A DNA stretch of 64,000 nucleotides from Polaromonas sp. 39-63-25 (GTDB lineage: Bacteria > Pseudomonadota > Gammaproteobacteria > Burkholderiales > Burkholderiaceae_C): contig NZ_NCJH01000006.1 in NCBI RefSeq assembly GCF_002278925.1, positions 62,001-126,000 of the forward strand, given 5' to 3'. The notes under the pieces were generated by a model. It was given only the letters and a program-made list of their open reading frames with translations. It ran no database searches and was not told the origin of the DNA. Made by a program: the position numbers and the translations under genes. Below are positions 2,634 through 61,826 of the stretch, in pieces (positions within the stretch are counted from its first letter, which is position 1; each line of letters opens with the position of its first letter).

Positions 2634-3272
2634 ATGAACGCCTCCCAAAACTTTGCCGCTGCCCTGCAGACCCTGCCGCTGGTCGCCATCCTGCGCGGCC
2701 TGCGCCCCGCCGAGGCCGTCCCGGTGGGCCAGGCGCTGCTGTCCACCGGCTGGACGCTGATCGAAGTCCCGCTCAATTCACCGCAGCCGCTGGACAGCAT
2801 TGCGGCCCTGGCCGCCGCCTGTCCCCAGGCCTTGGTCGGCGCCGGCACGGTGCTGGGTGTGAACGATGTGCGCAATGTGCAGGCCGCCGGTGGCCAGCTG
2901 ATCGTCTCGCCCAACTTCAACCCGGCCGTCGTGCGCGAAGCCGTGCGCCTGGGCCTGGTCTGCCTGCCCGGCGTGATGACGGCCAGCGAGGCCTTTGCCG
3001 CGCTCGAAGCCGGCGCCACCGGCCTGAAAATTTTCCCGGCGGAAATGATCACGCCCGCCGTGCTGAAAGCGCTGCGCGCAGTGCTGCCGGCCAAGACCGT
3101 GGTGCTGCCGGTGGGCGGCATCACGCCGGACAACATGGAAGCTTATTTCGCAGCAGGCGCCAGCGGCTTCGGCATCGGGTCGGCGCTTTACAAGCCCGGC
3201 ATGGCGGCCGCAGAAGTCGCTGAAAATGCTACAAAATTCATAGCTGCTTGCGCTGGTAACATAAAAACATGA
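2634..3272 (+). CDS. dgoA: 2-dehydro-3-deoxy-6-phosphogalactonate aldolase
   Basis: 212-aa class I aldolase of the KDPG/KHG family, splitting KDPGal into pyruvate and glyceraldehyde-3-phosphate. Motifs: LVAILRGLRP at the N-terminus (Glu/Arg region), GAGTVLGVNDV, and GLKIFPAEMITP with the Schiff-base Lys. The ATG at 2634 is chosen because it follows dgoK by 4 bp and gives a normal N-terminus (MNASQNFAAALQTL). The last ~15 codons (ENATKFIAACAGNIKT) are written in AT-rich codons and coincide with a copy of the dispersed short repeat of this window. The stop overlaps the start of the next gene (ATGA). A second KDPG-type aldolase, eda, lies at 16.8 kb. Confidence 0.92.
   Translation: MNASQNFAAALQTLPLVAILRGLRPAEAVPVGQALLSTGWTLIEVPLNSPQPLDSIAALAAACPQALVGAGTVLGVNDVRNVQAAGGQLIVSPNFNPAVVREAVRLGLVCLPGVMTASEAFAALEAGATGLKIFPAEMITPAVLKALRAVLPAKTVVLPVGGITPDNMEAYFAAGASGFGIGSALYKPGMAAAEVAENATKFIAACAGNIKT
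3227..3256 (+). repeat. Short AT-rich dispersed repeat, intragenic copy in dgoA
   Basis: Core GCTACAAAATTCATAGCTGC followed by TTGCGC, inside the 3' end of dgoA. It is read as A-T-K-F-I-A-A-C-A using codons (ACA, AAA, ATA) that are rare in the surrounding GC-rich genes. Compared from memory with the E. coli DgoA C-terminus, the protein length is unchanged, which suggests replacement rather than insertion. Confidence 0.75.
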
Positions 3273-4063
3273 GCACTATTTCATCCTCCAATTCATCAGT
3301 CATCTCTTTCGGCCTCGCGGGCCGCGTCTGCATGGTCACGGGCGGCGCCCAGGGCATCGGCGAGGCGTGTATACGGCGCTTTGCGCGCGAGGGGGCCCAG
3401 GTCGTCATTGCCGACATTGACGACAGCCGCGGCGCGGCCCTGGCCGCCGAGCTGGGCGGCCTGTATGTGCATTGCGACGTCGGCGACAAGGCCCAGGTCG
3501 ATGCGCTGGTGGCGCAAACCATGGCCGCCCACGGCCGCATCGATGTGCTGGTCAACAACGCCGGCATTTTCAGGGCCGCCGACTTTCTGGAGGTCACCGA
3601 AGCCGACTTCGACGCCGTGCTGCGCATCAACCTCAAGGGCTCGTTTCTGGTGGGCCAGGCCGTGGCGCGCGTGATGGCCGGCGCGGGCAAGGGCAGCATC
3701 ATCAACATGAGTTCGGTCAACGCCGTGCTGACCATTCCGACCATTGCCAGCTACAACGTCAGCAAGGGCGGCATCAACCAGCTCACCCGCGTGATGGCAC
3801 TGGCGCTGGCCGATAAAGGCGTGCGTGTCAACGCCGTCGCGCCCGGCACCATCGCCACCGAGCTGGCCGCCAAAGCCGTGCTGACCAGCCCCGAGGCCAC
3901 TGCCCGCATCATGAGCCGCACGCCCATGAAACGCCTGGGCGAACCCTCCGAGATTGCCGACACCGTGGCCTACCTGGCCAGCGATGCGGCCAGTTACATC
4001 ACCGGCGAGATCGTGGTGGTTGACGGTGGCCGCATGACCCTGAATTACACCGTTCCGGTGTAG
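3269..4063 (+). CDS. SDR-family NAD(P)-dependent sugar dehydrogenase-like oxidoreductase
   Basis: 264-aa classical short-chain dehydrogenase. It shows the cofactor motif TGGAQGIGEA near residue 25, NNAG at about 97, the catalytic Ser in NMSSVNA, YNVSKGG (Y-x3-K) near 170, and the C-terminal SDAASYITGEIVVVDGG. VVIADIDD after beta-2 has an acidic residue that favours NAD+. The start overlaps the dgoA stop by 4 bp (ATGA), so it is the last gene of the sugar-acid operon. In this context it probably oxidises the sugar or an acid intermediate, for example as an aldose dehydrogenase that makes the aldonolactone. SDR substrate cannot be read from the sequence alone. Confidence 0.85.
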   Translation: MSTISSSNSSVISFGLAGRVCMVTGGAQGIGEACIRRFAREGAQVVIADIDDSRGAALAAELGGLYVHCDVGDKAQVDALVAQTMAAHGRIDVLVNNAGIFRAADFLEVTEADFDAVLRINLKGSFLVGQAVARVMAGAGKGSIINMSSVNAVLTIPTIASYNVSKGGINQLTRVMALALADKGVRVNAVAPGTIATELAAKAVLTSPEATARIMSRTPMKRLGEPSEIADTVAYLASDAASYITGEIVVVDGGRMTLNYTVPV

Positions 4064-4193
4064 CCGGTCCGGCCGGCCACAGGAATGCGGCTGATTGCCG
4101 CTTCCCGTTGACATGGATCATGGATACGCGTGGGCGAACTCCCAAAAATTGGCCAGATTCAATAGACTGGCCGTTCAACAACCGGAGTTCACC

Positions 4194-4658
4194 ATGATGT
4201 CAATTCGCCTGATTTCCATCGCCGCAGTCGCTGCCACCTTGGGTTTGGCCGGTTGCGCCCAGACACGTTACGGTCACATGGCCTATCACAGCGGCGCAAC
4301 ACCGGCGTCCGGACAAGCCATGCCCATGGCCGGCCCCGGCGGCCCCATGGCGCGTATGGACGACCACATGACCGCCATGCGTTCCATGCATGACAGGATG
4401 TCACGCGCCAGAACGCCGGAGGAGCGCAACGCCCTGATGGCCGAGCACCACAAACTCATGCAGGACGGCATGGGCATGATGGGTGGCATGGGCCCCGGCG
4501 GCATGGGTGGCAGGGGTGGCATGATGGGACCTGGTCCGGGCCCCATGGCTGCTGATCCGGCGGCACGCCAGCAATGGATGGAAAAACGCATGGAGATGAT
4601 GCAGTCCATGATGCAGATGATGATGGACCGCCTGCCCCCGGCACCCGCCAAACCCTGA
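4194..4658 (+). CDS. Met/Gly-rich putative lipoprotein, probable copper-associated
   Basis: 154 aa. The N-terminus [21 protein letters not shown] is a lipoprotein signal with lipobox LAGC, so the mature protein should be lipid-anchored at Cys. The start at 4194 follows a GGAG site at 4182. The body is extremely rich in Met, Gly and His: [15 protein letters not shown], then [17 protein letters not shown] near the C-terminus. Met clusters of this sort are typical of periplasmic Cu(I)/Ag(I)-binding proteins. Together with the downstream DUF302, SHOCT and Cu-ATPase genes, a role as periplasmic copper buffer is inferred. No named family is recognised. The region [32 protein letters not shown] looks helical. 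Confidence 0.8.
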
Positions 4659-4666
4659 AAGACACC

Positions 4667-5116: not shown

Positions 5117-5128
5117 GAAGGTCAGCGT

Positions 5129-5383: not shown

Positions 5384-5437
5384 GGCACCATCCGCGTCGC
5401 TACCCCTCCTGCGGGCAGGGTTAAGGCCGCTGGCGGC

Positions 5438-5468
5438 TTGACCTTTCCATCATGGGAAGGTTTATCCT
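5438..5468 (+). promoter_or_regulatory. CueR/MerR-type promoter of the copper ATPase
   Basis: The -35 element TTGACC (5438-5443) and the -10-like TATCCT (5463-5468) are separated by 19 bp, the over-long spacer diagnostic of MerR-family activators. A near-perfect 21-bp dyad fills the spacer: left arm ACCTTTCCAT (5441-5450), right arm ATGGGAAGGT (5452-5461). The ACCTTnCC...GGnAAGGT pattern is the known CueR-type operator. Copper or silver induction of the ATPase gene is therefore inferred. No merR/cueR gene is present in the window. Confidence 0.88.
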
Positions 5469-10942: not shown

Positions 10943-11000
10943 TGCTACTGAATACATAGCTGCTTGCGCCCGTGGTTATTGGGCTGGAGGCCTTTTTCTT
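10943..11000 (+). repeat. Short dispersed repeat, long intergenic form
   Basis: Begins GCTACTGAATACATAGCTGC, continues TTGCGCCCG, then a spacer, TATTGGGC, TGGAGGCC and a T-rich run. It lies between the convergent tag and MATE genes. The GCCCG/GGGC pair plus T-run looks terminator-like for rightward transcription. Confidence 0.75.
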
Positions 11001-11001: not shown

Positions 11002-12537
11002 TCAAACCCCGGCTGATGGAATTCTTTTCAGCAGCCCCGCCGTGCTGCGCGGCCAGCCGATGCCGCCAAACCAGGCGCCGCCGGCCACCGCCCAGGCATT
11101 GAGCACGCCGTAGATCACCAGCGCCACCGCCTGGGCAAGAAAAACCCCGGCCAGGCCACCGTCCCAACGCAGGGCCAGCCAGCCGCCGGCGAGGGCCACC
11201 GCCAGCCGCGCCAGGTTGCCGAGCACCGGCCAGAGCAGCCGCCCGGCCCCCTGCGACGCAAAGTACAGCGCGAGGCCGAGCCCGAAAAAGCCATACACCG
11301 GCCCCACCACCCGCAGGTAGGCGCTGCCAGCTTCGATCATGGCCGGATCGCTGTTGAACAGTGAGAGCCAGGCCTTGGGAAACGCCGCGGCCCACAGGCC
11401 GATGGCTTCGGTCATCACGAAGGCCATGCCCGCGCCTATCCAGGTCGCGTGCAGCGCGCGTTCGCGCTGGCCCGCACCCATGCAGGTGCCCACCATCGCG
11501 ACCAGCGGCGCACCGAAACCGAAGACCAGCGGCACCAGCAGATACTCCAGCCGCGAGGCCGTGCCGTAGCCGGCAATCGCTGCGGTGCCGAAACTACCGA
11601 CCAGCGCGGTGGTGATGCCTATGGCCAGGTTGGTGGCGACCGTGGACACCGTGCCGACCAGGCCGACACGCAGGATGTCCTTGAACAGCGGCCAACGAAA
11701 ACGGATGTGTGCGAGCGACGGGCGCAACAGGCTTTTCGGCGACCACAGGTAGGCCGCCAGCACCAGGCTGCCCACCAGGTAATAGGCCAGCAGCGCAATG
11801 GCCCCGCCGGCAATGCCCAGCGCGGGCAGCGGACCCCAACCGAAGATCAGCAGCGGCGACAGCGGCAACAACACCAGCGCACCCAGCACCGTGACATTGG
11901 CCGGCACCGCCATGTTGCCGGTGCCGCGGATCACCGCCGACAGTGTGTTGAAAATCCACACCAGCGCCGCGCCGGCAAACACCCAGTTGGAATACACCAT
12001 GGCCGCCTCCAGCGCGCCACCGGTGCCGCCCATGCGGGCATACAGCCAGCGCCCGCCGCCCAGCACCGCCACCGTGAACAGCAGCGCGAACACGGCGGCA
12101 ATCACGATGGCGTGCAGCACCAGCGCATCGGCATCGCCCTTGCGCCGTGCGCCGAGGGCGCGGGCAATCGCCGAAGCGATGCCACCGCCCATGGCGCCGG
12201 CCGAGGTCATCTGCATCAGCATCACCACCGGAAACACCAGGGCCATGCCGGCCAGCGCGTCGGTGCCGAGTTTGCCAACGAAGTAAGTTTCAATCAGCCC
12301 GACACCGGCCTGCGCGAGCATGACCAGCACATTGGGGGCGGCCAGGCGCAGCAGGGTGGGCGCAATCGGCGCTTCGAGCAGCAGCCGCGTGCGTGGGTCA
12401 AGACCAGCCCCCACGCTCCCCACTGCGTGTGGTTCGCTGCCCCCCGAGGGGGCGCTGCGCCTGCGGCCCGGCAGAGCCGGTTCCGCGGCCCCTGCTTGAC
12501 TTGAAGAGGCTGTACTCGACGCATTGGCGCTGTTCAT
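11002..12537 (-). CDS. MATE-family multidrug efflux transporter (NorM-like)
   Basis: 511 aa, with about 12 membrane segments and two homologous halves. Typical MATE pieces are LLEAPIAPTLLRLAAPNVLV at the start of the core (about residue 53) and VGKLGTDALAGMALVFPV. Such proteins expel cationic drugs in exchange for Na+ or H+. The ATG overlaps the stop of the upstream MFS gene (ATGA). The first ~45 residues (rich in Ala, Ser, Pro, Gly) are not MATE-like and are encoded by a copy of the GC-rich repeat found elsewhere in the window, so the N-terminus may be repeat-derived or translation may start further in. It is the last gene of a marR-MFS-MATE operon. Confidence 0.9.
   Translation of the reverse strand: MNSANASSTASSSQAGAAEPALPGRRRSAPSGGSEPHAVGSVGAGLDPRTRLLLEAPIAPTLLRLAAPNVLVMLAQAGVGLIETYFVGKLGTDALAGMALVFPVVMLMQMTSAGAMGGGIASAIARALGARRKGDADALVLHAIVIAAVFALLFTVAVLGGGRWLYARMGGTGGALEAAMVYSNWVFAGAALVWIFNTLSAVIRGTGNMAVPANVTVLGALVLLPLSPLLIFGWGPLPALGIAGGAIALLAYYLVGSLVLAAYLWSPKSLLRPSLAHIRFRWPLFKDILRVGLVGTVSTVATNLAIGITTALVGSFGTAAIAGYGTASRLEYLLVPLVFGFGAPLVAMVGTCMGAGQRERALHATWIGAGMAFVMTEAIGLWAAAFPKAWLSLFNSDPAMIEAGSAYLRVVGPVYGFFGLGLALYFASQGAGRLLWPVLGNLARLAVALAGGWLALRWDGGLAGVFLAQAVALVIYGVLNAWAVAGGAWFGGIGWPRSTAGLLKRIPSAGV
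12407..12500 (+). repeat. GC-rich ~95-bp repeat, copy inside 5' end of MATE gene
   Basis: Starts with GCCCCCACG, then CACTGCGTGT, CTGCCCCCCGAGGGGG, GCTGCGCCTGCGGCCCGGCA and ends CGCGGCCCCTGCTTGA. The same order of blocks recurs at 21333 and, inverted, at 26321. Here it encodes, on the minus strand, the non-conserved N-terminal stretch of the MATE transporter. Confidence 0.8.
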
Positions 12538-16175: not shown

Positions 16176-16239
16176 GGGCATTGCATCTCTGGCGTCCTGG
16201 CACCCGGGGATCGCCGGCTTCACGCCGCGACTGCGGTTC

Positions 16240-16685
16240 GCCCAAGGCAGTAGGAGCGACTCCCCACTCCCTCCCCTATCCCGTCCCTCGCCTCGCTGGG
16301 CGATGGAGGGGGACTTCATTTGGCCGCGTGTGCTGCGCTCGCGTGCAAACATGACTGCTGCGTAAGAACGACGTGACGCGCTGCGCGCGTCACGTCCCCC
16401 GCATACGATCCCGACCCCGGTCCTGCATTCGATTCCCCCACCCGTCGGGCTGGGCCGAGGAGCGCAGCCGAAAGCGGATCAGGACGAGCGATTGTCTGAG
16501 CGAAGCGAGTTCGAGCTCGGCCCCGCTTTCGGCGAGCACCGGAGGTTTCCCGTAGCGAAGCGGAGGGACCCAGACCATCGGGTCGCCTTTTCTTTGACCC
16601 AGACCATCGGGTCGCCTTTTCTTTTGCTTACTTTTCTTTTGGCGACGCAAAAGAAAAGTGAGTTGCCGCCGGGCAACCCCCGGCT
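16240..16685 (+). repeat. ~430-bp dispersed element, copy A (convergent gloA/eda gap)
   Basis: The 670-bp gap 16176-16845 between gloA and eda holds no gene; this repeat fills most of it. Blocks shared with copies at 38.9 and 43.3 kb are, in order: CTCCCCACTCC, GGGCGATGGAGGGGGACTTC, GCAAACATGAC, a palindrome, CCCACCCGTCGGGCTGGGCC, GAGGAGCGCAG, a GAGCGATTGTCTGAGCG-type block, CCCAGACCATCGGGTCGCC and a T/A hairpin. Hairpin 1 is ACGTGACGCGC-TGC-GCGCGTCACGT (16371-16395). Hairpin 2 is ACTTTTCTTTTG-GCGACG-CAAAAGAAAAGT (16630-16659). This copy carries a tandem duplication of the GACCCAGACCATCGGG unit (16566 and 16597). Confidence 0.9.
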
Positions 16686-16777: not shown

Positions 16778-16822
16778 GCTATGAATTCAATAGCTGCATA
16801 CGCCCGAATCCATTGGGCCAAC
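16778..16822 (+). repeat. Short dispersed repeat, intergenic copy next to eda
   Basis: GCTATGAATTCAATAGCTGC followed by ATACGCCCG, a short spacer and CATTGGGCC. It matches the intergenic copies at 10943 and 29941 and lies just beyond the eda stop. Confidence 0.7.
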
Positions 16823-20823: not shown

Positions 20824-21333
20824 ATGGTTTCCAGAATGCTTTTGATTGCGGCCGCCGCCCTGCTTGGCGCCTGTGCCAGCACCCCCAGCGGCCCACGCGC
20901 CACCGCGCAGTTGCAGCCCACCACCGGCAACACCACCAGCGGCAGCGTCAGTTTTGTCCAGAAGGGCAAAAAGGTTCTGGTGAGCGGCGAAATCCGTGGC
21001 CTCAAGCCGAATGCGGAACACGGTTTTCATGTGCACGAAAAAGGCGACTGCTCCAGCGGCGACGGCATGAGCGCGGGCGGGCACTTCAACCCCACCGGCG
21101 CGCCGCATGGCAGCCACGGCATGGGCATGCACCACACCGGCGACCTGCCCAGCCTGAAAGCCGATGCCGGCGGTGTCGCCCGCTTCAACTTTGAATCAGG
21201 CTCTCTGGCTGTCGGTAGCGGCGTGACCGACGTCGTGGGCCGCGGCCTGATTGTTCACCGCGACCCCGATGACTACAAAACCCAGCCGACCGGCAACGCC
21301 GGCCCGCGGCTGGCTTGTGCGGTAATACGTTAG
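20824..21333 (+). CDS. sodC: Cu/Zn superoxide dismutase-like lipoprotein
   Basis: 169 aa. The signal MVSRMLLIAAAALLGAC has a lipobox LGAC, so the enzyme is probably lipid-anchored in the envelope. Copper and zinc ligands are all recognisable: HGFHVHEKGDC (two Cu His plus disulfide Cys), GGHFNP (bridging His), HHTGDLP (Zn His and Asp) and IVHRDPDDY (Cu His); the partner Cys is in RLACAVI. A complete ligand set implies an active enzyme that dismutates periplasmic superoxide. ATG 20824 follows AAGGAG with 7-8 bp spacing. Confidence 0.95.
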   Translation: MVSRMLLIAAAALLGACASTPSGPRATAQLQPTTGNTTSGSVSFVQKGKKVLVSGEIRGLKPNAEHGFHVHEKGDCSSGDGMSAGGHFNPTGAPHGSHGMGMHHTGDLPSLKADAGGVARFNFESGSLAVGSGVTDVVGRGLIVHRDPDDYKTQPTGNAGPRLACAVIR

Positions 21334-21429
21334 CCCCCACGGTCGCTCACTGCGTGTAGCTCCCTGCCCCCCGATGGGGCCGCTGCGCCTGCGGGCCGGC
21401 AAAGCCGGACCCGCGGCCCCTGCTTGATT
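21333..21429 (+). repeat. GC-rich ~95-bp repeat, copy between sodC and mocA-like gene
   Basis: Begins at the sodC stop with GCCCCCACGG, then CACTGCGTGTAG, CTGCCCCCCGATGGGGC, GCTGCGCCTGCGGGCCGGCA and ends GCGGCCCCTGCTTGATT. It fills the gap between two convergent genes. Internal inverted repeats (CCCCC/GGGG, GCCGGC) would fold strongly. Confidence 0.8.
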
Positions 21430-21436: not shown

Positions 21437-22015
21437 TCAACGCGCGGCGAGCAGTGCTTCGGCGCGCGCCAGGTCGTCCACGGTATCGACATCGGTCACG
21501 ATGCCGACATCGTCAAGCGCTAGGACCGCTACTGAATTCATAGCTTCCTGCGCCCGCACTACGGGCGCTGCGCCCTGATTTCCCGTTAATCCCAGCAAAC
21601 CGTCCCGGCACGCCGCGGCAAAGCCGACCGGGTGGCCGCGCGCGCCCTGGTACAGCGGAATCACCACCGCGTGTTGCGCCAGCGCCCGGGCCACGGCCCG
21701 CAACGTGTCGCTGCGCACCAGCGGCAGGTCGCCCGGCAGCACCAGCCAGCCCGTGGCATCCGGCGTGGCACGCACCGCCGCCGCAATCGAGTCACCCATG
21801 CCCGGATGCCCGGCGTCCTCAAGGTGCCAGGGCAGGCCGCTGGCGATCACTGCGTCCAGCGTGTGCTGCAGCACCGGCTTGCCGGCCAGCAGGGCCTGCA
21901 GCTTGTGGGTGTGGCCGCCGGACGCGATGAAACGTTCCCCGCGGCCCGAGGCCAGCACGATGACGGTGGGCAGCGCAAGAGGCGGGGGGGAGACGGGCGA
22001 TGAAGACAAGGACAT
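21437..22015 (-). CDS. MobA/MocA-like nucleotidyltransferase (molybdenum cofactor cytidylyltransferase type)
   Basis: 192 aa. GT-A-type NTP-transferase fold: the nucleotide loop LASGRGERF (about 21-29) replaces the usual LAAGxGxRF, then [29 protein letters not shown] (metal-binding Asp) and [19 protein letters not shown]. This is the pattern of MocA, which attaches CMP to molybdopterin, and of related transferases. A copy of the short dispersed repeat, including its second GC hairpin, lies within the gene at 21527-21570 and encodes part of [18 protein letters not shown]. The reading frame is intact across it. Confidence 0.85.
21527..21570 (+). repeat. Short dispersed repeat, long form inside the mocA-like gene
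   Basis: GCTACTGAATTCATAGCTTC, then CTGCGCCCG, CACTAC and CGGGCGCTGC. Both the AT-rich palindrome and the GCCCG/CGGGC hairpin are present, although the copy is entirely coding (minus-strand gene). Confidence 0.75.
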
Positions 22016-24901: not shown

Positions 24902-25591
24902 TTAGAACAGCTCAAGTATGCGCCATCCGCGCTCGGTGGCAATCGCCCGCAGGCGCTCGTCGGGGTTGGTGGCCACCGGGTGGGTGACTTTTTCCAGCAA
25001 AGGCAGATCGTTCATGGAATCGCTGTAAAAAGTGCTTTCCACCGCCTCCCAGTGCAGCCCGCGGTCGGCCAGCCATTGCTGGACCCGGGCTACCTTGCCT
25101 TCCCGGAAAGACGGGGTGCCGCGGATTTCACCGGTCAGCTGGCCGGCGGCGTCGCGCTCGAGTTCCACCGCAATCAGCTCGGTCACCCCGAACGCCTCGG
25201 CGATGGGCCGGGTCACGAATTCGTTGGTGGCGGTGACGATCACGGTGTCGTCCCCTGCCGCCTGGTGGCCGCGGACCAGATCCAGCGCCGTGGCTTGTAT
25301 GCCTTTTTGCACGATTTCGCCCATGAAACGGGCGTGAGCAGCTATTGATTTTGTAGCGCCCTGCTCCCGGATGGCCTGGGTGGCAAAACGCACGTAGTCA
25401 TGGATGTCGAGCGTTCCGGCCTGGTAGTGGGCAAAAAACTCGGCGTTGCGGCGCTTGAACTCGTGGCCCTCGCACCAGCCCAGTGCAATCGTGAACTCGC
25501 CCCACTCGTAGTCGGAATCGATGGGAATCAGCGTGTGGTCGAGGTCGAACAGGGCGATGCGCCGTTTTGCGGCGCCAGGGCGTGATGTCAC
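24902..25591 (-). CDS. HAD-IB family phosphatase
   Basis: 229 aa. HAD motifs: FDLDHTLIPIDSDYEW (motif I, D-x-D), VTATNEFVTRP (motif II), then REGKVARVQQWL (Lys, motif III) and FYSDSMNDLPLLE (motif IV). The group includes SerB-like phosphatases, and a phosphoserine phosphatase role is conceivable because serA and serC are in the window but no serB is; it remains unproven. The start is GTG 25591, whose GTGA overlaps the hda stop. A copy of the short repeat lies within the gene (25331-25360), encoding GATKSIAAHA. Confidence 0.9.
   Translation of the reverse strand: MTSRPGAAKRRIALFDLDHTLIPIDSDYEWGEFTIALGWCEGHEFKRRNAEFFAHYQAGTLDIHDYVRFATQAIREQGATKSIAAHARFMGEIVQKGIQATALDLVRGHQAAGDDTVIVTATNEFVTRPIAEAFGVTELIAVELERDAAGQLTGEIRGTPSFREGKVARVQQWLADRGLHWEAVESTFYSDSMNDLPLLEKVTHPVATNPDERLRAIATERGWRILELF
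25331..25360 (-). repeat. Short AT-rich dispersed repeat, intragenic copy in HAD phosphatase
   Basis: On the gene's strand: GCTACAAAATCAATAGCTGC, read as A-T-K-S-I-A-A. Same frame and nearly the same codons as the copies in dgoA, kynB and the citE-like gene. Confidence 0.75.
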
Positions 25592-26320: not shown

Positions 26321-26432
26321 TCAAGCAGGGGCTGCGGAACCGGCTTTGCCGGGCCGCAGGCGCAGCGGCCCCTCCTATTCGTGCAAGGGGCAGCGCACCA
26401 CCGAAGGTACACGAAGTGACAAGCGTGGGGGC
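26321..26432 (-). repeat. GC-rich ~95-bp repeat, inverted copy between perM-like gene and hda
   Basis: Read on the minus strand it has the blocks GCCCCCACG, CACTTCGTGTACC, GGGGCCGCTGCGCCTGCGG, CCCGGCAAAGCCGG and GCAGCCCCTGCTTGA, the same order as the copies at 12407 and 21333. It fills the 164-bp gap between two co-directional genes and contains the sequence upstream of hda. Confidence 0.8.
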
Positions 26433-29940: not shown

Positions 29941-29985
29941 TTGCTACAAAAATACTAGCTGCTTGCGCCCGCATTCATTGGGCAG
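29941..29985 (+). repeat. Short dispersed repeat, long intergenic form after MFS gene
   Basis: GCTACAAAAATACTAGCTGC, TTGCGCCCG, spacer CATTCATT, GGGC, then ACTTTTGAG. It begins about a dozen bases after the MFS stop codon and precedes the ParA-like gene. Confidence 0.75.
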
Positions 29986-30980: not shown

Positions 30981-31030
30981 AGCCCCCACGGTTGCTCACT
31001 GCGTGTAGCGCCCGAGGCCTTGCAGGCCGC
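30981..31030 (+). repeat. GC-rich repeat, head-only copy after parA-like gene
   Basis: GCCCCCACGGTTGCTCACTG followed by CGTGTAG matches the first part of the repeats at 21333 and 12407. The rest of the 194-bp gap to the next gene is GC-rich and diverges, though it keeps self-complementary pieces (AGCTGC...GCAGCT, GAGCCGCAGGCTC). No gene is seen in the gap. Confidence 0.6.
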
Positions 31031-31171
31031 GGCTCGCGAGACGCTTCGCCTCTGTCGCCTGTCCAAAGCTGCTCAAGCAGCTTTGGAGCCGCAGGCTCCA
31101 GCCCCTCGGCCCATGCTCGAAAAAATCCCCCGCGATCACTTGCTGCGTGCGGCCCCGCACCAGCCATCCGG

Positions 31172-32078: not shown

Positions 32079-33644
32079 TCAGCGCCGCATCAACTTTCGC
32101 ACTTTCAGGCCGGTGGCCCAAAGTGCTCCGAAATAAATAGCAGCTGACGCAAGCAGGACAAGGGCCAGCAACCCGATTCGCTTGAAGGCTTCGGCCCGCA
32201 ACCCGGTCCAGCTGACAGCCTGGGCGGACCACATCAAAAAGACCGCAAGCAGCGCCGTGGCGGCCAGCACCTGCAACAAGAACATGCCCCAGCCGGGCGA
32301 CGGCTTGTAGCTGCCGCGCTGGCGCAGGCCGATCAGCAGCCAGAGCGCATTGATCAGCGCGCCTATGCCGATGGCCAGGGCCAGCCCGGCGTGTTGCAGC
32401 AGCGGCACAAAGGCCAGGTTGAGCAGCTGCGTGATCACCAGCACCACCAGCGCAATTTTCACGGGCGTGCGGATGTCCTGGCTCGCGTAAAAACCGGGCG
32501 CCAGCACCTTGATGGCCACCAGGCCCACCAGGCCGGCACCGTAGCCCATCAGCGCCGTCGTGGTCTGCTGCACATCGCGGTCGGTGAAGGCGCCATAGTG
32601 GTACAGCGTGGCCACCAGCGGCTGGGCAAAGGTCAGCAGCGCGACAGCGCTCGGCACGGCCATCAGCACGACGATGCGCAGGCCCCAGTCCAGCATGGCG
32701 GAATAGGCGTCACCGTCGCCCGCGGCCTTGGCGGCGGCCAACTGCGGCATCAGCACCACCCCGATGGCCACACCCAGCATGGCGGTGGGAAACTCCATCA
32801 GGCGGTCCGCGTAGGTCAGCCAGCTGACGCTGCCGGGCGTCAGGTGCGAGGCGATCTGGGTGTTGATGATGGTGGAGACATGCGCCACGCTGACCCCCAG
32901 TAGCGCCGGCATCATCAGGCGGGCGATGTTTTTGGTGTCGGGGTCGGCCCAGGCGTTGCGGATGGCCGTCCAGCCCAGGCCCATGCGCGGCAACATGCCG
33001 ATCCGCAGCAGGGCCGGCACCTGCACCGCCAGCTGCAGGGCTCCGCCCAACATCACGCCGGCGCCCATCGCGTAAATCGGCTCAATGCCCAGGGTCTTGA
33101 GCCAGGGCGCACCGAACCAGGCCGCGCCAATCATGGAGAGGTTCAGCAGCACCGGTGTGGCGGCCGGCACGGCAAAACGCTTCCAGGTGTTCAAAATGCC
33201 GGCCGACAGGGCCACCAGCGACATGAAACCGATGTAGGGGAACATCCAGCGCGTCATGAATACCGCCGCTTCGAAACCGCGCGGCTCCTGCTTGAGCCCG
33301 CTGGCCATCAGCCAGACCAGCACCGGGGCCGCCGCCACCCCGATCACACAGGTCAGCAGCAGCGCCCAGGCCAGCAGGGTGGCGACCCGGTTGACCAGCA
33401 CCTGGGTGGCCGCCTCGCCGTGCTGGGCCTTGCTGGCGGCCAGCACCGGCACAAACGCCTGGCTGAATGCGCCCTCGGCAAACAGGCGACGGAACAGGTT
33501 GGGAATGCGGAAAGCGACGTTGAAGGCGTCCGTCATGGCGCTGGCGCCAAACGTCGAGGCCACCAGCAGCTCCCGCACCAGACCGGTGATCCGGGAAACC
33601 AGCGTGAACAGGGAAACGGTGGACGCGGATTTGAAAAGTGACAC
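32079..33644 (-). CDS. murJ: Lipid II flippase MurJ
   Basis: 521 aa, about 14 membrane helices. MurJ (MviN) moves lipid-linked peptidoglycan precursor across the inner membrane. Family features: the N-terminus SLFKSASTVSLFTLVSRITG, FGASAMTDAFNVAFRIPNLF, RRLFAEGAFSQAFVPVL with its essential Arg residues, and QIASHLTPGSVSWLTYADRL with MEFPTAMLGVAIGVVLMPQL. A short AT-rich repeat copy lies near the 3' end (32125-32154), encoding ASAAIYFGA within a terminal helix. In related genomes murJ is usually directly divergent from rpsT; here two extra genes separate them. Confidence 0.96.
   Translation of the reverse strand: MSLFKSASTVSLFTLVSRITGLVRELLVASTFGASAMTDAFNVAFRIPNLFRRLFAEGAFSQAFVPVLAASKAQHGEAATQVLVNRVATLLAWALLLTCVIGVAAAPVLVWLMASGLKQEPRGFEAAVFMTRWMFPYIGFMSLVALSAGILNTWKRFAVPAATPVLLNLSMIGAAWFGAPWLKTLGIEPIYAMGAGVMLGGALQLAVQVPALLRIGMLPRMGLGWTAIRNAWADPDTKNIARLMMPALLGVSVAHVSTIINTQIASHLTPGSVSWLTYADRLMEFPTAMLGVAIGVVLMPQLAAAKAAGDGDAYSAMLDWGLRIVVLMAVPSAVALLTFAQPLVATLYHYGAFTDRDVQQTTTALMGYGAGLVGLVAIKVLAPGFYASQDIRTPVKIALVVLVITQLLNLAFVPLLQHAGLALAIGIGALINALWLLIGLRQRGSYKPSPGWGMFLLQVLAATALLAVFLMWSAQAVSWTGLRAEAFKRIGLLALVLLASAAIYFGALWATGLKVRKLMRR
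32125..32154. repeat. Short AT-rich dispersed repeat, degenerate intragenic copy in murJ
   Basis: GCTCCGAAATAAATAGCAGC followed by TGACGCAAGC. It keeps the AT-rich ATAGC heart and the flanking CGCAAGC but is the most diverged of the intragenic copies; the gene stays in frame. Confidence 0.5.
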
Positions 33645-38906: not shown

Positions 38907-38954
38907 GTCCATTGAGGCATCACGCTCCGTCCCCGGTTCACTTCGGGCAGTAGT

Positions 38955-39365
38955 GTCAACTCCCCACTCCCGCCCCTAACCCCTCCCTCGCCCCGCTGGG
39001 CGATGGAGGGGGACTTCATTTGGCCGCGTGTACTGCAAGCACGTGCAAACATGACGGCCACGTTCTCCGACATGACGCGCGTAGCGCGTCATGTCTCTCC
39101 GTACCCGAACCCGCATTCGTTTCCCCCACCCGTCGGGCTGGGCCGAGGAGCGCAGGCAAAAGCGGATCAGGGCTGGCGTTGTTTGAGCCGAAGGCGAGTT
39201 TAGCCAGACCCCGCTTTTGCCGAGCACCACAGGTTGCCCGCAGCGAAGCGAAGGGACCCAGACCATCGGGTCGCCTTTCTTTTCCTTAGGTTTCTTTGGC
39301 GAAGCAAAGAAAAGTAAGTCGCCCGCCGGGGCGAGTCCCGGCTTGCTGGCACACCACAGCAGCTG
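38955..39365 (+). repeat. ~420-bp dispersed element, copy B (convergent argF/SDR gap)
   Basis: The 494-bp gap 38907-39400 has no gene and is mostly this element. It has the same block order as copies A and C. Hairpin 1 is ACATGACGCGC-GTA-GCGCGTCATGT (39070-39094), where the outer pair differs from copy A but is still complementary. Hairpin 2 is TTTCTTTG-GCGAAG-CAAAGAAA (39291-39312), shorter on both arms. CCCAGACCATCGGGTCGCC occurs once. Confidence 0.9.
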
Positions 39366-40373: not shown

Positions 40374-41066
40374 ATGACGTCCCGCGCCACCCCTGCACCC
40401 ACTGAACACGCTGCCGCCCGGCCGCGGAAAATCTGGGACATCTCGCCCGCCGTGGACGAGCAGGCCGCCGTGTTTCCGGGCGACGCAGCGTATTCGCAGA
40501 AGCTGCACTTTGCGCTCTCGCCCGGCTGCCCGGTCAATGTCAACACCCTCACCTTCTCGCCGCACACCGGCGCCCATGCCGATGCCCCCATGCACTATGC
40601 CAACGGCGCGCCGGCCATTGGCGCCGTGGATCTGCAGCCCTACCTCGGGCCCTGCCGCGTGATCCACTGCCTGGACTGCGGGCCGCTGGTGGAGCCGCAG
40701 CACATCGCCCACGCGCTGGAAAACCTGCCCGCGCGCGTGTTGCTGCGCACGGCCGCGGCCGCCAGCCAGTCCTGGGCATCGTTTACGGCGATTGCGCCCG
40801 CCACGCTTGCGCTGTTAGCTACAAAAAACATAGCACTCATCGGCATCGACACGCCCAGCGTGGACCCCGCCACCAGCCAGGACCTGCCCAGCCACCACCT
40901 GCTGCTCAAGCACGATCTGCGCGTGCTGGAAAACCTGGTGCTCGACGAGGTGCCGGAAGGCGACTACGAGCTGATTGCCCTGCCTCTCAAACTGACAAAA
41001 GCCGACGCCTCGCCCGTTCGCGCCGTGCTGCGCGAACTGCCCGGGAACGGCGCTGGAAACCCATGA
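40374..41066 (+). CDS. kynB: Kynurenine formamidase
   Basis: 230 aa. Hydrolyses N-formylkynurenine to kynurenine. The bacterial KynB metal site is seen in [18 protein letters not shown] (His/Asp ligands), with [17 protein letters not shown] at the N-terminus and [20 protein letters not shown] following the core. ATG 40374 gives the standard start. Codons for ATKNIA (about residues 149-154) come from a short dispersed repeat copy without apparent change in protein length. The stop overlaps the kynU start (ATGA). First gene of kynBUA; no kynR-like regulator is adjacent. Confidence 0.95.
40818..40836 (+). repeat. Short AT-rich dispersed repeat, intragenic copy in kynB
   Basis: GCTACAAAAAACATAGCAC, read as A-T-K-N-I-A within kynB. 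It is only the AT-rich core, without the GC hairpin, and sits just before the conserved LIGIDTPS block. Confidence 0.65.
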
Positions 41067-43194: not shown

Positions 43195-43250
43195 CCTAGC
43201 CCTTTTCCTGCGGTCGCCAGTAGCTATTTAATTGATAGCGATATCGGCAT
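43195..43250 (-). repeat. Short dispersed repeat, long intergenic form after kynA
   Basis: On the minus strand: GCTATCAATTAAATAGCTAC, TGGCGACCG, spacer, AAAAGGGCTAGGACCC. It begins about a dozen bases after the kynA stop and lies just before copy C of the large element. Confidence 0.65.
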
Positions 43251-43274
43251 CACGCTGCTTTCGCGGCGTGCGCA

Positions 43275-43685
43275 GGCACAGTAGGGTCTAACTCCCCACT
43301 CCCACCCCTAACCCCTCCCTCGCCCCGCTGGGCGATGGAGGGGGACTTCATTTGGTCGCGTGTGCTGCGCCCGCGTGCAAACATGACGGTCCCGTACTCC
43401 GACGATGACGCGCAAAGCGCGTCATCGTCTCCCCGAATCCGTATCCGTCCCCGCATTGGTCCCCCCACCCGTCGGGCTGGGCCGAGGAGCGCAGCCGAAA
43501 ACGGATCAGGGCGAGCGATTGTCTGAGCGCAGCGAGTTCGAGCTCGACCCCGTTTTCGGCGAGCACCGTAGGTTGCCCGTAGCGAAGCGAAGGGTCCCAG
43601 ACCATCGGGTCGCCTTTTCTTTGGTGACTTTCTTTTGGCGACGCAAAAGAAAGTTACTTGCCGCCGGGCAACTCGGTGGATTGCC
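43275..43685 (+). repeat. ~420-bp dispersed element, copy C (convergent kynA/monooxygenase gap)
   Basis: The 551-bp gap 43183-43733 holds no gene. This copy has the shared blocks in the same order and orientation as A and B. Hairpin 1 is ACGATGACGCGC-AAA-GCGCGTCATCGT (43402-43428), one base pair longer than in A and B. Hairpin 2 is ACTTTCTTTTG-GCGACG-CAAAAGAAAGT (43627-43654), one pair shorter than in A with both arms adjusted. Confidence 0.9.
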
Positions 43686-44915: not shown

Positions 44916-47800
<2,885 letters not shown>

Positions 47801-53957: not shown

Positions 53958-54020
53958 CAAAACAAGGCTCCAGCCCTTGCTGGTCTTTCGCAAGCAGCTA
54001 TTGAATAAATAGCAGCTCAA
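53958..54020 (-). repeat. Short dispersed repeat, long intergenic form between convergent genes
   Basis: On the minus strand: GCTATTTATTCAATAGCTGC, TTGCGAAAG, ACCAGCAAGGGCTGGAGCC and TTGTTTTG. It occupies the gap between the molybdopterin enzyme and the convergent MFS gene; a CCAGC/GCTGG stem followed by T-rich DNA is terminator-like. Confidence 0.7.
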
Positions 54021-55672: not shown

Positions 55673-55757
55673 GCATACCAAAGACCATCAACAGCGTCCA
55701 CATCACACCACTCCCGCCCGCGTTGATGCCCGGCGCTGCGTCCCGTTGCTCTGTTTT

Positions 55758-55804
55758 TGATAGCTTTTTGCGCCCGTCCGGAAAGGGCTGCAGGCACTTT
55801 TTTC
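55758..55804 (+). repeat. Short dispersed repeat, intergenic copy
   Basis: TTTTTGATAGCTTTTTGCGC, CCGTCCGGAAAGGGC, TGCAGGC and ACTTTTTTC. The left AT palindrome is reduced, while the second GCCCG/GGGC hairpin with T-run is well kept. Confidence 0.6.
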
Positions 55805-56470: not shown

Positions 56471-56487
56471 AACACCGGTTGCACGAC

Positions 56488-57469: not shown

Positions 57470-60085
57470 TCAGGCCGGCACGCTGTCTTTCACCGTGTCG
57501 GCCATGTCGGTGTAATCCTTGACCTGGTCGAAGTTGAGGTACTGGTAGACCTCGGCGCTGGCGGCGGTCAGCACACCCATGTCGGCCATGTATTCGGCCT
57601 TGGTCGGGATGCGGCCCAGCTTGGAGCAGATGGCGGCCAGTTCCGCAGAACCCAGGTACACGTTGGAATTCTTGCCCAGGCGGTTCGGGAAGTTGCGCGT
57701 CGAGGTCGAGAACACGGTCGCGCCCTCTTTCACCTGCGCCTGGTTGCCCATGCACAAGCTGCAGCCCGGCATTTCCATGCGCGCACCGGCCGAACCCAGC
57801 ACACCGTAGTGGCCTTCTTCGCTCAGCTGCTTGGCGTCCATCTTGGTGGGCGGCGCCATCCAGAGCTTGACCGGAATGTCGCGCTTGTTTTCCAGCAGCT
57901 TGGAGGCTGCGCGGAAATGGCCGATATTGGTCATGCAGCTGCCGATGAAAACTTCATCGATCTTGCTGCCGGCCACTTCACTCAGCGTCTTCACGTCGTC
58001 CGGATCGTTCGGGCAGGCCACGATGGGTTCGTGGATGTCGGCCAGATCGATCTCGATCACGGCGGTGTATTCCGCGTCCGCGTCGGCCTTGAGCAGCTGC
58101 GGGTCGGCCAGCCAGGCTTCCATGGCGGCGATGCGGCGCTTGATGGTGCGCACGTCCGAGTAACCCGAGGCAATCATCCACTTGAGCATGGTGATGTTGC
58201 TGGTGATGTACTCGATGATGGGTTCCTTGTTCAGGTGCACCGTGCAGCCGCCGGCAGAACGTTCGGCCGAAGCATCGCTCAGTTCAAACGCCTGCTCGAC
58301 CTTCAGATCGGGCAAACCTTCGATTTCCAGGATGCGGCCGGAGAAGATGTTTTTCTTGCCCTGCTTGGCGACCGTCAGCAGGCCGGCCTTGATCGCGTAG
58401 AGCGGAATCGCATTGACCAGGTCGCGCAGCGTGATGCCGGGCTGCATCTGGCCCTTGAAACGCACCAGCACCGACTCGGGCATGTCCAGTGGCATGACGC
58501 CGGTGGCGGCACCGAAAGCCACCAGGCCGGAACCTGCAGGGAAGCTGATGCCGATGGGGAAACGCGTGTGGCTGTCGCCGCCGGTGCCGACGGTGTCGGG
58601 CAGCAGCATGCGGTTGAGCCAGCTGTGGATGATGCCGTCGCCCGGGCGCAGCGGGATGCCGCCGCGGTCGCTCATGAACTCGGGCAGTTCATGGTGCATC
58701 TTCACATCGACCGGCTTCGGATAAGCCGCCGTGTGGCAGAAGGACTGCATCACCAGGTCGGCGGAGAAGCCCAGGCAGGCCAGGTCTTTCAGTTCGTCGC
58801 GTGTCATCGGGCCAGTGGTGTCCTGGGAACCCACGGACGTCATCTTCGGCTCGCAATAGGTTCCGGGGCGCACGCCCTGGCCTTCCGGCAGGCCGACCGC
58901 GCGGCCGACCATTTTTTGTGCCAGCGTGAAGCCGCGCTCGCTGGCGACGGGCGCCTGCGGCAGGCGAAACAGCGTCGAGACCGGCAGCCCCAGCGCCCAG
59001 CGTGCCTTGGCCGTCAGGCCGCGGCCGACGATCAGCGGAATGCGGCCGCCGGCGCGCACTTCGTCAAACAGCACCTCGCTCTTGAGCTTGAACTCGGCAA
59101 TCACCTTGCCGTCTTTCAGCGCCTTGCCCTCGTAGGGGCGCAGCTCGATCACGTCGCCCATGGCCATCTGGCTCACGTCGAGCTCGATCGGCAACGCGCC
59201 GGAGTCTTCCATGGTGTTGTAGAAAATCGGCGCGATTTTGGAGCCCAGGCAAACGCCGCCAAAACGTTTGTTTGGCACATAGGGAATGTCCTGGCCGGTG
59301 AACCACAACACCGAGTTGGTGGCGGACTTGCGGGAAGAACCGGTGCCCACCACGTCGCCAACGTAGGCCACCAGATTGCCCTTGGCTTTCAGTTCTTCAA
59401 TAAATTTGACCGGACCGCGTTTGCCGTCTTCTTCCGGTGTGACGCCAGGGCGGGCGTTTTTGTGCATGGCCAGCGCGTGCAGCGGAATGTCGGGGCGGCT
59501 CCAGGCGTCGGGTGCGGGCGACAGGTCGTCGGTGTTGATCTCGCCGGCCACCTTGAACACGGTCAGCTTGATCGACTCCGGCACTTCGGGGCGGCTGGTG
59601 AACCACTCGGCATCGGCCCAGCTCTGCAGCACGGCCTTGGCGTATTTGTTGCCCTTGTCGGCTTTTTCCTTGACGTCGTGAAACTGGTCGAACATCAGCA
59701 GGGTGTTTTTCAGGCCGCTGGCGGCCTGGTTGGCGACACTTTCTTCAGCGTCGTCGAGCAAATCGATCATGGGGCTGATGTTGTAGCCGCCCAGCATGGT
59801 GCCCAGCAGTTGCGTGGCTTTTTCACGCGAGATCAGGGAACACTTTTCGGTGCCATGCGCCACGGCGGCCAGATAGCTGGCCTTGACTTTGGCCGCGTCA
59901 TCGACACCGGCCGGAACGCGGTGCGTGATCAGTTCAACCAGGAAGGCCTCTTCGCCCTTGGGCGGGTTTTTCAGCAGCTCGATGACTTCGCCCGTCTGTT
60001 TGGCAGACAGGGGCAACGGCGGAATGCCGAGTGTGGCCCGCTCGGCCACGTGGTTGCGGTAGGTGGTTATGAACTCGGGCATCAT
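57470..60085 (-). CDS. acnB: Aconitate hydratase B (bifunctional aconitase/2-methylisocitrate dehydratase type)
   Basis: 871 aa, normal AcnB size. The N-terminal HEAT-like domain begins [20 protein letters not shown], the swivel domain includes [20 protein letters not shown], and the cluster cysteines lie in [16 protein letters not shown] and [16 protein letters not shown]. It is the main TCA-cycle aconitase in most proteobacteria; AcnA at 45 kb is the second enzyme. The ATG at 60085 or 60082 follows AGGAGAAGAAAACC. Leftward terminator at 57405. No operator-like palindrome was found upstream. Confidence 0.96.
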
Positions 60086-60157
60086 GGTTTTCTTCTCCTG
60101 TACTCAAAAATTTGCAAAGTCAAAGTGGTGCGCGCCTGGCGGGGTACCCGCCTGGTG

Positions 60158-60796
60158 TTATTCGGCTTTGGCCGGCGTTTGTGCGGGCTGAGCAGAACCC
60201 GTGCCAGCCAGCGCGGTAGCCGGCTTGTCTGCGGGCAGGGGATCCAGAATGCTCACCGGAGGGTTCTTCTTCATCTCGTCGGCAAAGGTGGCCTGCAACG
60301 GGCTCATGCATTCATCGGCCATGCGCTGGCCCAGCTTCTGGCTCATCAGCATGGACTTGTTGCCCAGCTGCAGCCACATCGCGCCGGCACGGCCGTCTTC
60401 CAGGCGGATGGCGCCGGTGCGGCTTCCGACAGGGTGCATGCGGAAACGCGTCTTGCCGGTTTGCACCAGGAAAAAGCCCGGGCGCTTTTCGCTCGGCGTG
60501 ATGGTGACGGAAACGCCGAGTTCGCAGGGAATCGTGCCCACATGAACCCGCTTGGCGAGTTCGAGGTCTTCGGGGGTCAGCGTGACGCTGGGGTCGTCAT
60601 CGATGGGCGTCATTTCTTCCACCACCTTGGCGGCAGAGCGTTTGATGCGCGCGCGTTTGGCGGCCTGGACAGGTTGGGTGGACGCAGACGCGGCCTTCGG
60701 GGCAGCCTTGGCAGGTGCAGCCTTGGCAGGTGCGGTCTGGGCCAGCAGCATGGCGGGAGCGGCAAGTGCCAGGGCGGTGAGAACAATGAGTTTCAT
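60158..60796 (-). CDS. Hypothetical secreted protein
   Basis: 212 aa. The signal peptide MKLIVLTALALAAPAMLLAQ is followed by an Ala/Lys/Pro-rich stretch (about residues 22-60), then a conserved-looking domain: DDDPSVTLTPEDLELAKRVH, HVGTIPCELGVSVTITPSEK, PGFFLVQTGKTRFRMHPVGS, RTGAIRLEDGRAGAMWLQLG. Two Cys occur in the mature protein. The family is not recognised; similar proteins are widespread near TCA-cycle genes in related bacteria, from memory. ATG 60796 follows AAGGACCCC. It is between acnB and the CitE-like gene, all leftward. Confidence 0.75.
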   Translation of the reverse strand: MKLIVLTALALAAPAMLLAQTAPAKAAPAKAAPKAASASTQPVQAAKRARIKRSAAKVVEEMTPIDDDPSVTLTPEDLELAKRVHVGTIPCELGVSVTITPSEKRPGFFLVQTGKTRFRMHPVGSRTGAIRLEDGRAGAMWLQLGNKSMLMSQKLGQRMADECMSPLQATFADEMKKNPPVSILDPLPADKPATALAGTGSAQPAQTPAKAE

Positions 60797-60836
60797 GAGG
60801 GGTCCTTGGAAAACGGATGAGGATGAGCCAATCGGT

Positions 60837-61826
60837 CTAATGAAGCGCAGCGGAAAAATAGACCTGCGCCTCTGGCGCAAGCACACGGCCGGTCTGGTGC
60901 GCGCGTTCGAGCACCTGCCAGAAATAGCGGTAACTGGCGCGGTCGTGCAACTGACCTTCAAAACTGATGGGCGCCCAATCGGCACGGGCGGCAGCAGCTA
61001 TTATTTTTGTAGCATTTTCAATCTCGCCTTCGCTGGGCGCAAAAGCCTCCAGGATGGGGGGGATTTGGCCCGGGTGGATGCTCCACATCCGGGTGTAGCC
61101 GAACTCCAGGGCGGCTTTTTGCGCAGCCGCCTTCATGGCGCAAGTGTCACTGAATTCGGTGACAACACAGTGCGAGGGGACTTTGCCGTACGCGTGGCAG
61201 GCGGAGGCGATCTCGAGCTTGGCACGCACCACCAGCGGGTGCGTGAACTGGCCCTGGCTGCTCATGCCCCCGGCAGGAATGGCGCCACCGTGGCTGGAGA
61301 CAAAGTCCATCAGGCCAAAGCTGAGTGACTGCACGCGCGGGTGGGCTGCAATGTCGAAAGCACGGTGCACCGCAGCGGGCGATTCCAGCAACACATGGAC
61401 CGGCAGCGTAACCCGCGAGACGGCGGCCAGGGCAGCCACCACGCGTTCGACGTCCGCAACCGATTCGACCTTGGGCACCATGAGGTGGCAGAGCCTGCCG
61501 CCGACCTGGCCGGCAATGGTGGCAATGTCCGCCTCAAACGCCGGATGGTCCACCGCATGGACCCGCACCGCCACACGCGCCCCGTCACCGGCCTGCGCGA
61601 CCAGCGCGCAAACCAGCGCCGCGTGGTCGGCCTCGCCACCGACGGGCGCGCCGTCCTCGCAGTCCAGCGTCACGTCGAACATGCAGGTGCCGAACTCCTC
61701 GGTCATCTCCGCCTGCAGCTGCAGGCTTTTGCGCATCCGCGCCTCGACGCCGCTGTAATGATCACAGACCGGCAAAAAAACCGCCGCGGCCTGTGCCCCC
61801 AGAAGAACGTCGCGAGGATGTGTCAC
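60837..61826 (-). CDS. HpcH/HpaI aldolase / citrate lyase beta-like (CitE family)
   Basis: 329 aa. TIM-barrel acyl-CoA lyase family. Visible: the Mg-binding [11 protein letters not shown] near residue 53, [76 protein letters not shown] and [20 protein letters not shown]. Stand-alone CitE proteins cleave or form malyl-, citramalyl- or similar CoA thioesters; exact substrate unknown. A short repeat copy encodes [10 protein letters not shown] near residue 270. It follows mdh by 20 bp and is probably co-transcribed. Confidence 0.9.
60990..61018 (-). repeat. Short AT-rich dispersed repeat, intragenic copy in citE-like gene
   Basis: On the gene's strand: GCTACAAAAATAATAGCTGC, read A-T-K-I-I-A-A. 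Same frame as the dgoA, HAD and kynB copies. The codons ACA, AAA, ATA, ATA are unusual for this GC-rich gene. Confidence 0.75.

What the first reader, a model, noticed from the sequence alone, without database searches (positions are those of the whole stretch)
3227..61018. A short AT-rich dispersed element is fixed inside at least seven genes, and four copies read A-T-K-x-I-A in the same frame
Copies in dgoA (3227), HAD phosphatase (25331), kynB (40818) and the citE-like gene (60990) all contain GCTACAAAA-nnn-ATAGC and are translated in the same frame, giving ATKFIA, ATKSIA, ATKNIA and ATKIIA. Further copies lie in the mocA-like gene, acnA and murJ. The codons ACA, AAA and ATA stand out against GC-rich neighbours. 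Compared from memory with homologues (E. coli DgoA C-terminus, KynB before LIGIDTPS), the proteins are not longer, so the element seems to replace codons rather than insert. That is unlike a simple MITE and hints at conversion-like or templated spread, or at repeated selection of the same short sequence as a DNA signal.
Basis: partly seen in the sequence, partly recalled or inferred. Interest (0 to 1): 0.85.

Follow-up and report, generated by a model that had tools for sequence, protein, structure and literature searches.

The report
Genome-wide DNA signal written into genes
A sharply defined DNA tag occurs hundreds of times in this Polaromonas-type chromosome and in many related bacteria, even inside genes where it replaces codons, and it behaves like a mark read by a protein, much as the self-DNA tags that some bacteria use when they take up DNA.

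Summary
The window has 13 copies, 7 in genes, all 7 in one frame. The core is a 17-bp palindrome, GCTAYNNWWWNNRTAGC: 338 sites in the genome against 1 for the reversed pattern. By hand count 51 of 200 family genomes have at least 50 sites; 291 order genomes outside the family have at most 9. An oriented extension, about 57 bp in all, has a middle that differs between genera and within the genus.
In citE, kynB and HAD the site replaces codons without a gap; in acnA it came with 24 extra in-frame bases. Rare codons in the citE site are conserved. The shared frame is largely a coding effect: one frame forces TAG, and G020 uses the other two 5 to 7.
The palindrome does not favour hairpin pairing, orientation is free, and 400 kb of Polaromonas plasmids hold none. 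Evidence on copying between elements is mixed.
I read it as a protein-read DNA signal arising mostly by substitution; an uptake-type self mark leads, a chromosome-organising site is the main rival. No reader protein was found. Fragments are in print without function.

The parts
3228..3244 (+). core in the dgoA-type aldolase gene (2634-3272), codons GCT ACA AAA TTC ATA GCT; oriented extension follows on +
   Evidence: G099 keeps the core with a changed interior
10944..10960 (+). intergenic core with full extension to about 11000 (TGCTTGCGCCCG, GGGCTGGAGGCC, T tract), between convergent genes
16778..16794 (+). intergenic core, extension on +
21528..21544 (+). core in the MobA/MocA-like gene (called 21437-21958, -), read AMNSVA; element oriented opposite to the gene
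   Evidence: G099 lacks it without a gap in the core
25341..25357 (-). core in the HAD histidinol-phosphatase-like gene (24902-25591, -), read ATKSIA
29943..29959 (+). intergenic core with one base off the consensus, extension present
32125..32141 (.). relaxed core (GCTCC variant) in murJ (32079-33644, -), read AIYFGA
40818..40834 (.). core in kynB (40452-41066, +), read ATKNIA; extension weak
43223..43239 (-). intergenic core, extension on -
45644..45700 (-). complete 57-bp element in acnA (core 45684-45700), gained with 24 extra in-frame bases
53997..54013 (-). intergenic core; three aligned close relatives keep the half-sites while the free positions differ, a fourth (G570) has a core at a like distance past the same gene
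55748..55764 (+). intergenic relaxed core (GCTCT variant), kept in three close relatives
60957..61013 (-). element in the citE-like gene (called 60837-61736, -), core 60997-61013, read ATKIIA; rare codons conserved across Polaromonas-type orthologues

Best explanation
Shown: a genome-wide DNA signal of about 57 bp with a dyad-symmetric 17-bp core (GCTAYNNWWWNNRTAGC) and an oriented, lineage-specific extension. It is kept at the DNA level, and in three of the four genes compared with sets of relatives lacking it, it sits there without any length change, so it was formed by base substitution; in the fourth (acnA) with 24 extra bases. Inferred: a protein, probably a dimer on the core, reads it. 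This would account for high copy number with turnover of places, dialect change, free orientation, and the absence from the plasmids sampled.
For: 338 sites v 1 control. Spacing 7 only: 78 sites v 9 in reversed sequence, and 0 at spacings 4 to 6 and 8 to 11 in the own stretches. Exact, 1- and 2-mismatch cores 71/49/49 v 0/15/123 in reversed sequence. Selected by flank alone, 44 of 44 hits have a core with at most 2 mismatches. In 17 Polaromonas-type citE sequences the top 5 of 248 codon columns for conserved rare codons lie in the element. No gap at the site in citE, kynB and HAD. Different module in a congener. Few places shared between genomes. 0 sites v 28 expected in 400 kb of plasmids. 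A ComEC match in the genome. Papers on DUS/USS describe dialects with a fixed core, growth by point mutation, intergenic preference and a frame barred by a stop (passages).
Against: No uptake or transformation data. ComEC is also in 22 of 23 signal-poor genomes, and in E. coli among the controls, so it neither tracks the signal nor proves competence. The DUS and USS consensus sequences printed in the papers read are not dyad-symmetric; a symmetric core fits an ordinary dimeric DNA-binding protein at least as well. acnA gained its copy with a 24-nt insertion. Whole elements resemble each other more than shuffled columns in 4 of 4 genomes. No reader protein was identified. About 340 sites in 4.8 Mb is sparser than the almost 1,500 copies given for the Neisseria DUS.
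Confidence: 0.42

Rival explanations
1. Binding site of a nucleoid or chromosome-organising protein (a dimer on the palindrome, a partner on the extension). Number and spread matter rather than exact places, so sites turn over but the total is kept.
For: Dyad symmetry, fixed spacing, A/T centre and no preference for internal pairing; random-like spacing with mean 12 kb; none in the plasmid sample.
Against: The extension differs between congeners while the core stays, which is unusual for hundreds of sites of one housekeeping protein. Several sister genera have almost none.
Confidence: 0.35
2. A miniature mobile or REP-like family that multiplied in each genus, perhaps also by conversion between copies, and was then preserved in part.
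For: Lineage-specific full-length consensus; best pairs of whole elements above shuffled columns in 4 of 4 genomes (P 0.0, 0.043, 0.0 and 0.003) and a higher spread of identity at free columns in the own set; a 24-nt in-frame gain in acnA.
Against: No gaps in citE, kynB and HAD; at free columns the best pair is no better than chance in the 3 genomes testable, with 12, 7 and 4 columns; no copies in 400 kb of plasmids; exact cores outnumber mutated ones.
Confidence: 0.12
3. Transcription terminator or RNA structure at gene ends.
For: Enriched between convergent genes, 19 of 53 intergenic sites v 15 percent of intergenic bases; GC-rich module followed by a T or A tract; in G020 the module is a near-perfect inverted repeat.
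Against: Orientation to the gene is even: 13 same v 12 opposite in tandem gaps (4 of 29 dropped for a weak extension), 9 v 12 inside genes (1 of 22 dropped). No clear covariation in the module. No Rfam match in the window at gathering scores.
Confidence: 0.05
4. Chance or protein-level convergence on A-T-K-x-I-A.
For: Only two frames are open and the motif suits helices (my judgement).
Against: The site is mostly intergenic (53 of 75), and synonymous positions are conserved.
Confidence: 0.01

Closest known systems
DNA uptake sequences of Neisseriaceae (DUS) and Pasteurellaceae (USS)
   Same: Hundreds of copies, sharp core, lineage dialects with a constant core, mostly point-mutation origin, intergenic preference with in-frame genic copies and one frame barred by a stop (passages in PMC3630211 and PMC1939737; abstract and Findings section of PMC2346458)
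   Different: Here the core is a spaced palindrome, the element is about 57 bp, copies are sparser, and no link to uptake is shown
Motif pairs ATAGCT(N)22CAAAAG of P. naphthalenivorans CJ2 and GCTTAT(N)5AAGCG of Acidovorax ebreus (PMC5217627; abstract, passages and section 13)
   Same: The first begins with the right half-site and has 125 copies, 101 intergenic, 18 in genes, 34 between convergent genes; I take both as fragments of this element in other dialects (inference from spacing and sequence)
   Different: Reported as separate motifs of single genomes; what I read gives no palindromic core, family-wide reach, dialects, codon replacement or function
REP elements and RAYTs
   Same: Short, dispersed, mostly extragenic, hundreds of copies
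   Different: No preference for internal pairing, many genic copies, free spacer bases; the six terms searched, including Polaromonas and Acidovorax, do not occur in the main text of two REP surveys
Rickettsia palindromic elements (recalled)
   Same: Palindromic repeats inside genes in a fixed frame
   Different: Those lengthen proteins (recalled); here citE, kynB and HAD show no length change and acnA 8 codons

Membership tests
DNA uptake sequence (DUS/USS) | Strong over-representation of a short exact core across the chromosome | tested here: met
   338 v 1; mismatch spectrum
DNA uptake sequence (DUS/USS) | Arises by point mutation rather than insertion | tested here: met
   citE, kynB, HAD gapless; acnA is an exception with +24 nt; intergenic origin not resolved
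DNA uptake sequence (DUS/USS) | Lineage dialects with a constant core | tested here: met
   own, G020, G413, G031, G099
DNA uptake sequence (DUS/USS) | Biased uptake or transformation of DNA carrying it | not testable with these tools
   needs a wet test
DNA uptake sequence (DUS/USS) | Competence channel present where the signal is | tested here: inconclusive
   ComEC in 23 of 23 signal-rich and 22 of 23 signal-poor genomes
DNA uptake sequence (DUS/USS) | Dedicated receptor pilin such as ComP | not tested
   no receptor was searched
REP element | Hairpin-forming palindrome | tested here: not met
   pairing inside the core at or below expectation in 14 of 16 genome-by-pair cells; only the outer arms are complementary by the pattern; in G020 the separate module is a near-perfect inverted repeat
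REP element | Extragenic | tested here: not met
   22 of 75 sites inside genes
REP element | Associated RAYT transposase | not tested
   not searched
In-frame inserted element (Rickettsia type) or MITE | Genes without the element are shorter by its length | tested here: not met
   acnA differs by 24 nt from four relatives, not by 57
Dimeric DNA-binding-protein site | Dyad symmetry with fixed spacing | tested here: met
   spacing 7 only, of 2 to 14 tested
Dimeric DNA-binding-protein site | A protein that binds it | not tested
   no candidate found

The most novel reading that the evidence does not exclude
Many Comamonadaceae use an uptake-type self-recognition system, outside the two families known for it, built on a dyad-symmetric core with an exchangeable dialect module. 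It rewrites codons across the proteome, and the module can switch at hundreds of sites between species of one genus.
Probability: 0.33. Interest if true: 0.9.

Novelty: new variant of a known kind. Interest (0 to 1): 0.74.

Why it matters
A DNA-level signal strong enough to fix rare codons inside a conserved enzyme gene, kept at 50 to 600 sites per genome in some 34 genera (hand count), with a module that changes between lineages, suggests that an unidentified protein shapes whole chromosomes in a large environmental family. If it acts in DNA uptake, it gives an independent case for testing how such signals evolve and isolate species. If it organises the chromosome, it points to an unknown architectural protein. 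Either way it biases synonymous sites and short protein stretches in these genomes.

Tried and rejected
ComEC does not separate signal-rich from signal-poor genomes. Strand or replichore polarity: in G015 (one contig) 109 hits to ATAGCTGCTTGCGCTT, 65 forward and 44 reverse (P 0.055); of the 100 listed, forward exceeds reverse in all four stretches, 19/14, 19/11, 12/7, 12/6, so there is no switch of sign, only a slight lean. Copying between elements: with whole elements the best pair beat the shuffles in 4 of 4 genomes (own 51 of 57, simulated maximum 49). Consensus-like copies resemble each other anyway, so I repeated it at free columns: the best pair is then at chance in own (P 0.56, 12 columns), G020 (7) and G031 (4), G413 has none; in own the spread of identities stays high (1.70 v 1.59, 0 of 500 shuffles). 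The power is low, so copying is not excluded; for this I moved the mobile rival from 0.10 to 0.12 and the organiser rival from 0.36 to 0.35 on re-checking. Closest other copy to the acnA element: 88 percent over 42 bases within the element, not decisive for a template. Hypervariable interior at site 53997 was considered and dropped, as the surrounding gap also diverges (by eye). The comparison of gaps with other genera rests on 13, 47 and 36 intervals. Literature: in the listings seen (20 of 747, 0 of 0, 20 of 598, 20 of 664, 20 of 90, 10 of 28 papers) I saw nothing on this element; (10 of 18) led to PMC5217627.
Full report
Observation. All four stated copies are exact and in one frame; with up to 3 mismatches the window holds 20 matches on the two strands against a shuffled mean of 1.58. 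A logo of 31 C-type copies showed that bases 8 to 10 are always A or T, giving the core GCTAYNNWWWNNRTAGC. The window holds 13 copies: 10 strict, 2 relaxed and one with a single base off; 7 are in genes, all 7 in frame 0. Genes were named by profile search. The genome is a Polaromonas or very near it: the best named relative of the citE-like protein is Polaromonas at 92 percent, and two same-genus genomes have contigs of the same lengths as Polaromonas records.

Genome-wide and phylogenetic reach. The core occurs 338 times in the genome against 1 for the reversed pattern. Of 300 order genomes, the 291 outside the own family have at most 9 each (read from the table). Of 200 family genomes 51 have 50 or more, in 34 genera, 14 have 10 to 49 and 135 have 9 or fewer (hand counts). 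I took 30 of the 80 named loci as handles: Polaromonas (7 genomes) 173 to 528, Acidovorax (4) 241 to 265, Simplicispira (3) 89 to 176, Variovorax (3) 18 to 50, Ramlibacter (3, one a MAG) 8 to 11, Caenimonas 18, a MAG labelled Gammaproteobacteria 155; Limnohabitans (3), Hydrogenophaga, Pseudorhodoferax, Pseudacidovorax (2) and Xenophilus 0 to 4. Congeners can differ strongly: 320 v 4 and 234 v 11.

Anatomy. Of spacings 2 to 14 only 7 is enriched: 78 v 9 in reversed sequence for own, likewise in G020, G413 and G031. The extension runs to about base 57. In the own genome it reads TGCTTGCGCCCG, then AAGGGCTGGA, then a GCC block and an A/T tract. The middle differs in G020 (GGCCGGCG ... CGCCGGCC), in an Acidovorax (G413), in G031 and in the congener G099 (GCCAAGG ... 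TTGGGCTAGAGGCC, 32 sites oriented by the own model). These logos select on the core, so its 100 percent columns are by construction. The unbiased test selects on the flank alone: 44 hits, with 0, 1 or 2 core mismatches in 23, 17 and 4, while the four spacer positions vary. Of 30 loci with the 14-mer ATAGCTGCTTGCGC, 22 have the strict core and 7 of the other 8 the GCTC variant. Pairing inside the core is at or below expectation in 14 of 16 genome-by-pair cells; G413 4-12 (0.89 v 0.72) and own 5-11 (0.30 v 0.28) are above. The module shows no clear covariation, though in G020 its consensus is itself a near-perfect inverted repeat, where the test has little power. This argues for protein binding rather than a hairpin at the core.

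Places. In 855 kb of the own genome 75 exact GCTAYN7ATAGC sites fall 53 between genes and 22 inside (18 percent of the sequence is non-coding), with convergent gaps enriched, 19 of 53. A second run of my gene caller gave 85 percent coding and 24 v 47 for the strict core. Orientation to genes is even: 13 v 12 in tandem gaps, 9 v 12 in genes, after dropping 4 of 29 and 1 of 22 with a weak extension. Spacing is close to random, mean 12 kb. Frames: 22, 2, 0 (own), 5, 7, 0 (G020), 15, 2, 0 (G031), 1, 0, 0 (G413), 6, 0, 0 (G099): 0 of 60 in the frame that forces TAG and a genus-dependent split of the other two. Gene calls are from my own simple caller.

How genic copies arise. In citE (81 sequences) the site is present in 18 by a strict pattern, and 0 of 81 rows have a gap in the 32 columns around it; Limnohabitans lacks it there without a gap. 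kynB (the 30 best of 77 genomes with a match, own included) has it in 3, HAD (30 best of 117) in 4 by a relaxed pattern, none gapped. In 17 Polaromonas-type citE sequences the five codon columns with the most conserved rare codons, of 248 scored, are in the element (residues 272, 273, 275, 277, 278); residue 274 is not conspicuous, as 38 outside columns reach the lowest inside value. In 16 Acidovorax, Simplicispira and similar sequences, where the left arm is mostly altered, the top column is again in the site but most of the leading ones are not. Shared ancestry inflates such scores inside and outside alike. acnA differs: the own gene has 24 more in-frame bases than G593, G542, G570 and G586 (33 more than G099), and the two ends of the element resemble sequence already present in the first four. 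Against G099, 11 of 71 strict sites could be aligned: 7 kept, 2 relaxed, 2 absent; 60 could not. In 104 shared gene gaps own has 5, G099 6, both 2 (0.29 expected); G020 0, 2, 0 of 13, G413 5, 3, 1 of 47, G031 2, 5, 0 of 36; the margins used let a few genic sites count. At the intergenic site 53997 the half-sites and the A/T centre are the same in own and three aligned relatives, while the four spacer positions differ; G570 has a core at a like distance past the same gene.

Mobile element or not. Against: no gaps in three genes; exact cores outnumber single-mismatch cores, 71 v 49 with control 0 v 15; eight 50-kb stretches of four plasmids of Polaromonas JS666 and CJ2 hold none against 28 expected at the density of the window's genome. 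I did not measure either host chromosome here; for CJ2, 125 copies of a fragment are in print. For: whole elements are more alike than shuffled columns in 4 of 4 genomes, and in own the spread at free columns stays high, although the best pair is at chance (P 0.56). So copying between elements is not the main pattern, but not excluded.

What it works like. Passages of PMC3630211 and PMC1939737 and the Findings section of PMC2346458 describe uptake sequences with dialects around a fixed core, growth by point mutation, intergenic preference, a frame barred by a stop, and orientation and gene-end biases within genes. The match in behaviour is close, but membership needs uptake data that I cannot obtain, and the symmetric core and lower copy number differ. 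ComEC is present in the own genome but also in 22 of 23 signal-poor ones and in E. coli. In my judgement the DNA-signal claim stands at about 0.9, the uptake reading at 0.42 and the chromosome-organiser reading at 0.35.

Prior art. PMC5217627 (abstract, passages and section 13 read) lists ATAGCT(N)22CAAAAG in P. naphthalenivorans and GCTTAT(N)5AAGCG in A. [quoted passage not shown] That both are fragments of this element is my inference. Two REP surveys do not mention these genera in their main text. In the listings, which are capped and cover open-licence papers only, I saw no other paper on it.

Noticed in passing
window 16216-16624, 38916-39284, 43248-43623: Three copies of a roughly 370-nt repeat unrelated to the element, its two blocks 72 to 94 percent alike to the reference, with a tandem doubled 29-nt unit at 16567-16624.
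   Followed up: no
window 12446-12499, 21376-21427, 26321-26374: A GC-rich 52 to 54-nt sequence in three places (one inverted), 87 to 94 percent alike between pairs.
   Followed up: no
window 21332-21364 and 30981-31013: A 33-nt direct repeat, 94 percent alike, with a weaker third copy at 31125.
   Followed up: no
L211 2028, L212 2017, L213 2061: A palindrome GCTACGCTTTTCGTAGC in the same gap of three genomes, upstream of a gene that looks like infC (recall); it matches the core pattern but is probably a leader structure.
   Followed up: partly
L218 (G095, stretch C2:120000-139999): This genome has 14 copies of ATAGCTGCTTGCGC but only 5 palindromes; the one copy seen has no strict left arm.
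   Followed up: partly
G036: The one genome of 46 without a ComEC match also has no core sites.
   Followed up: no
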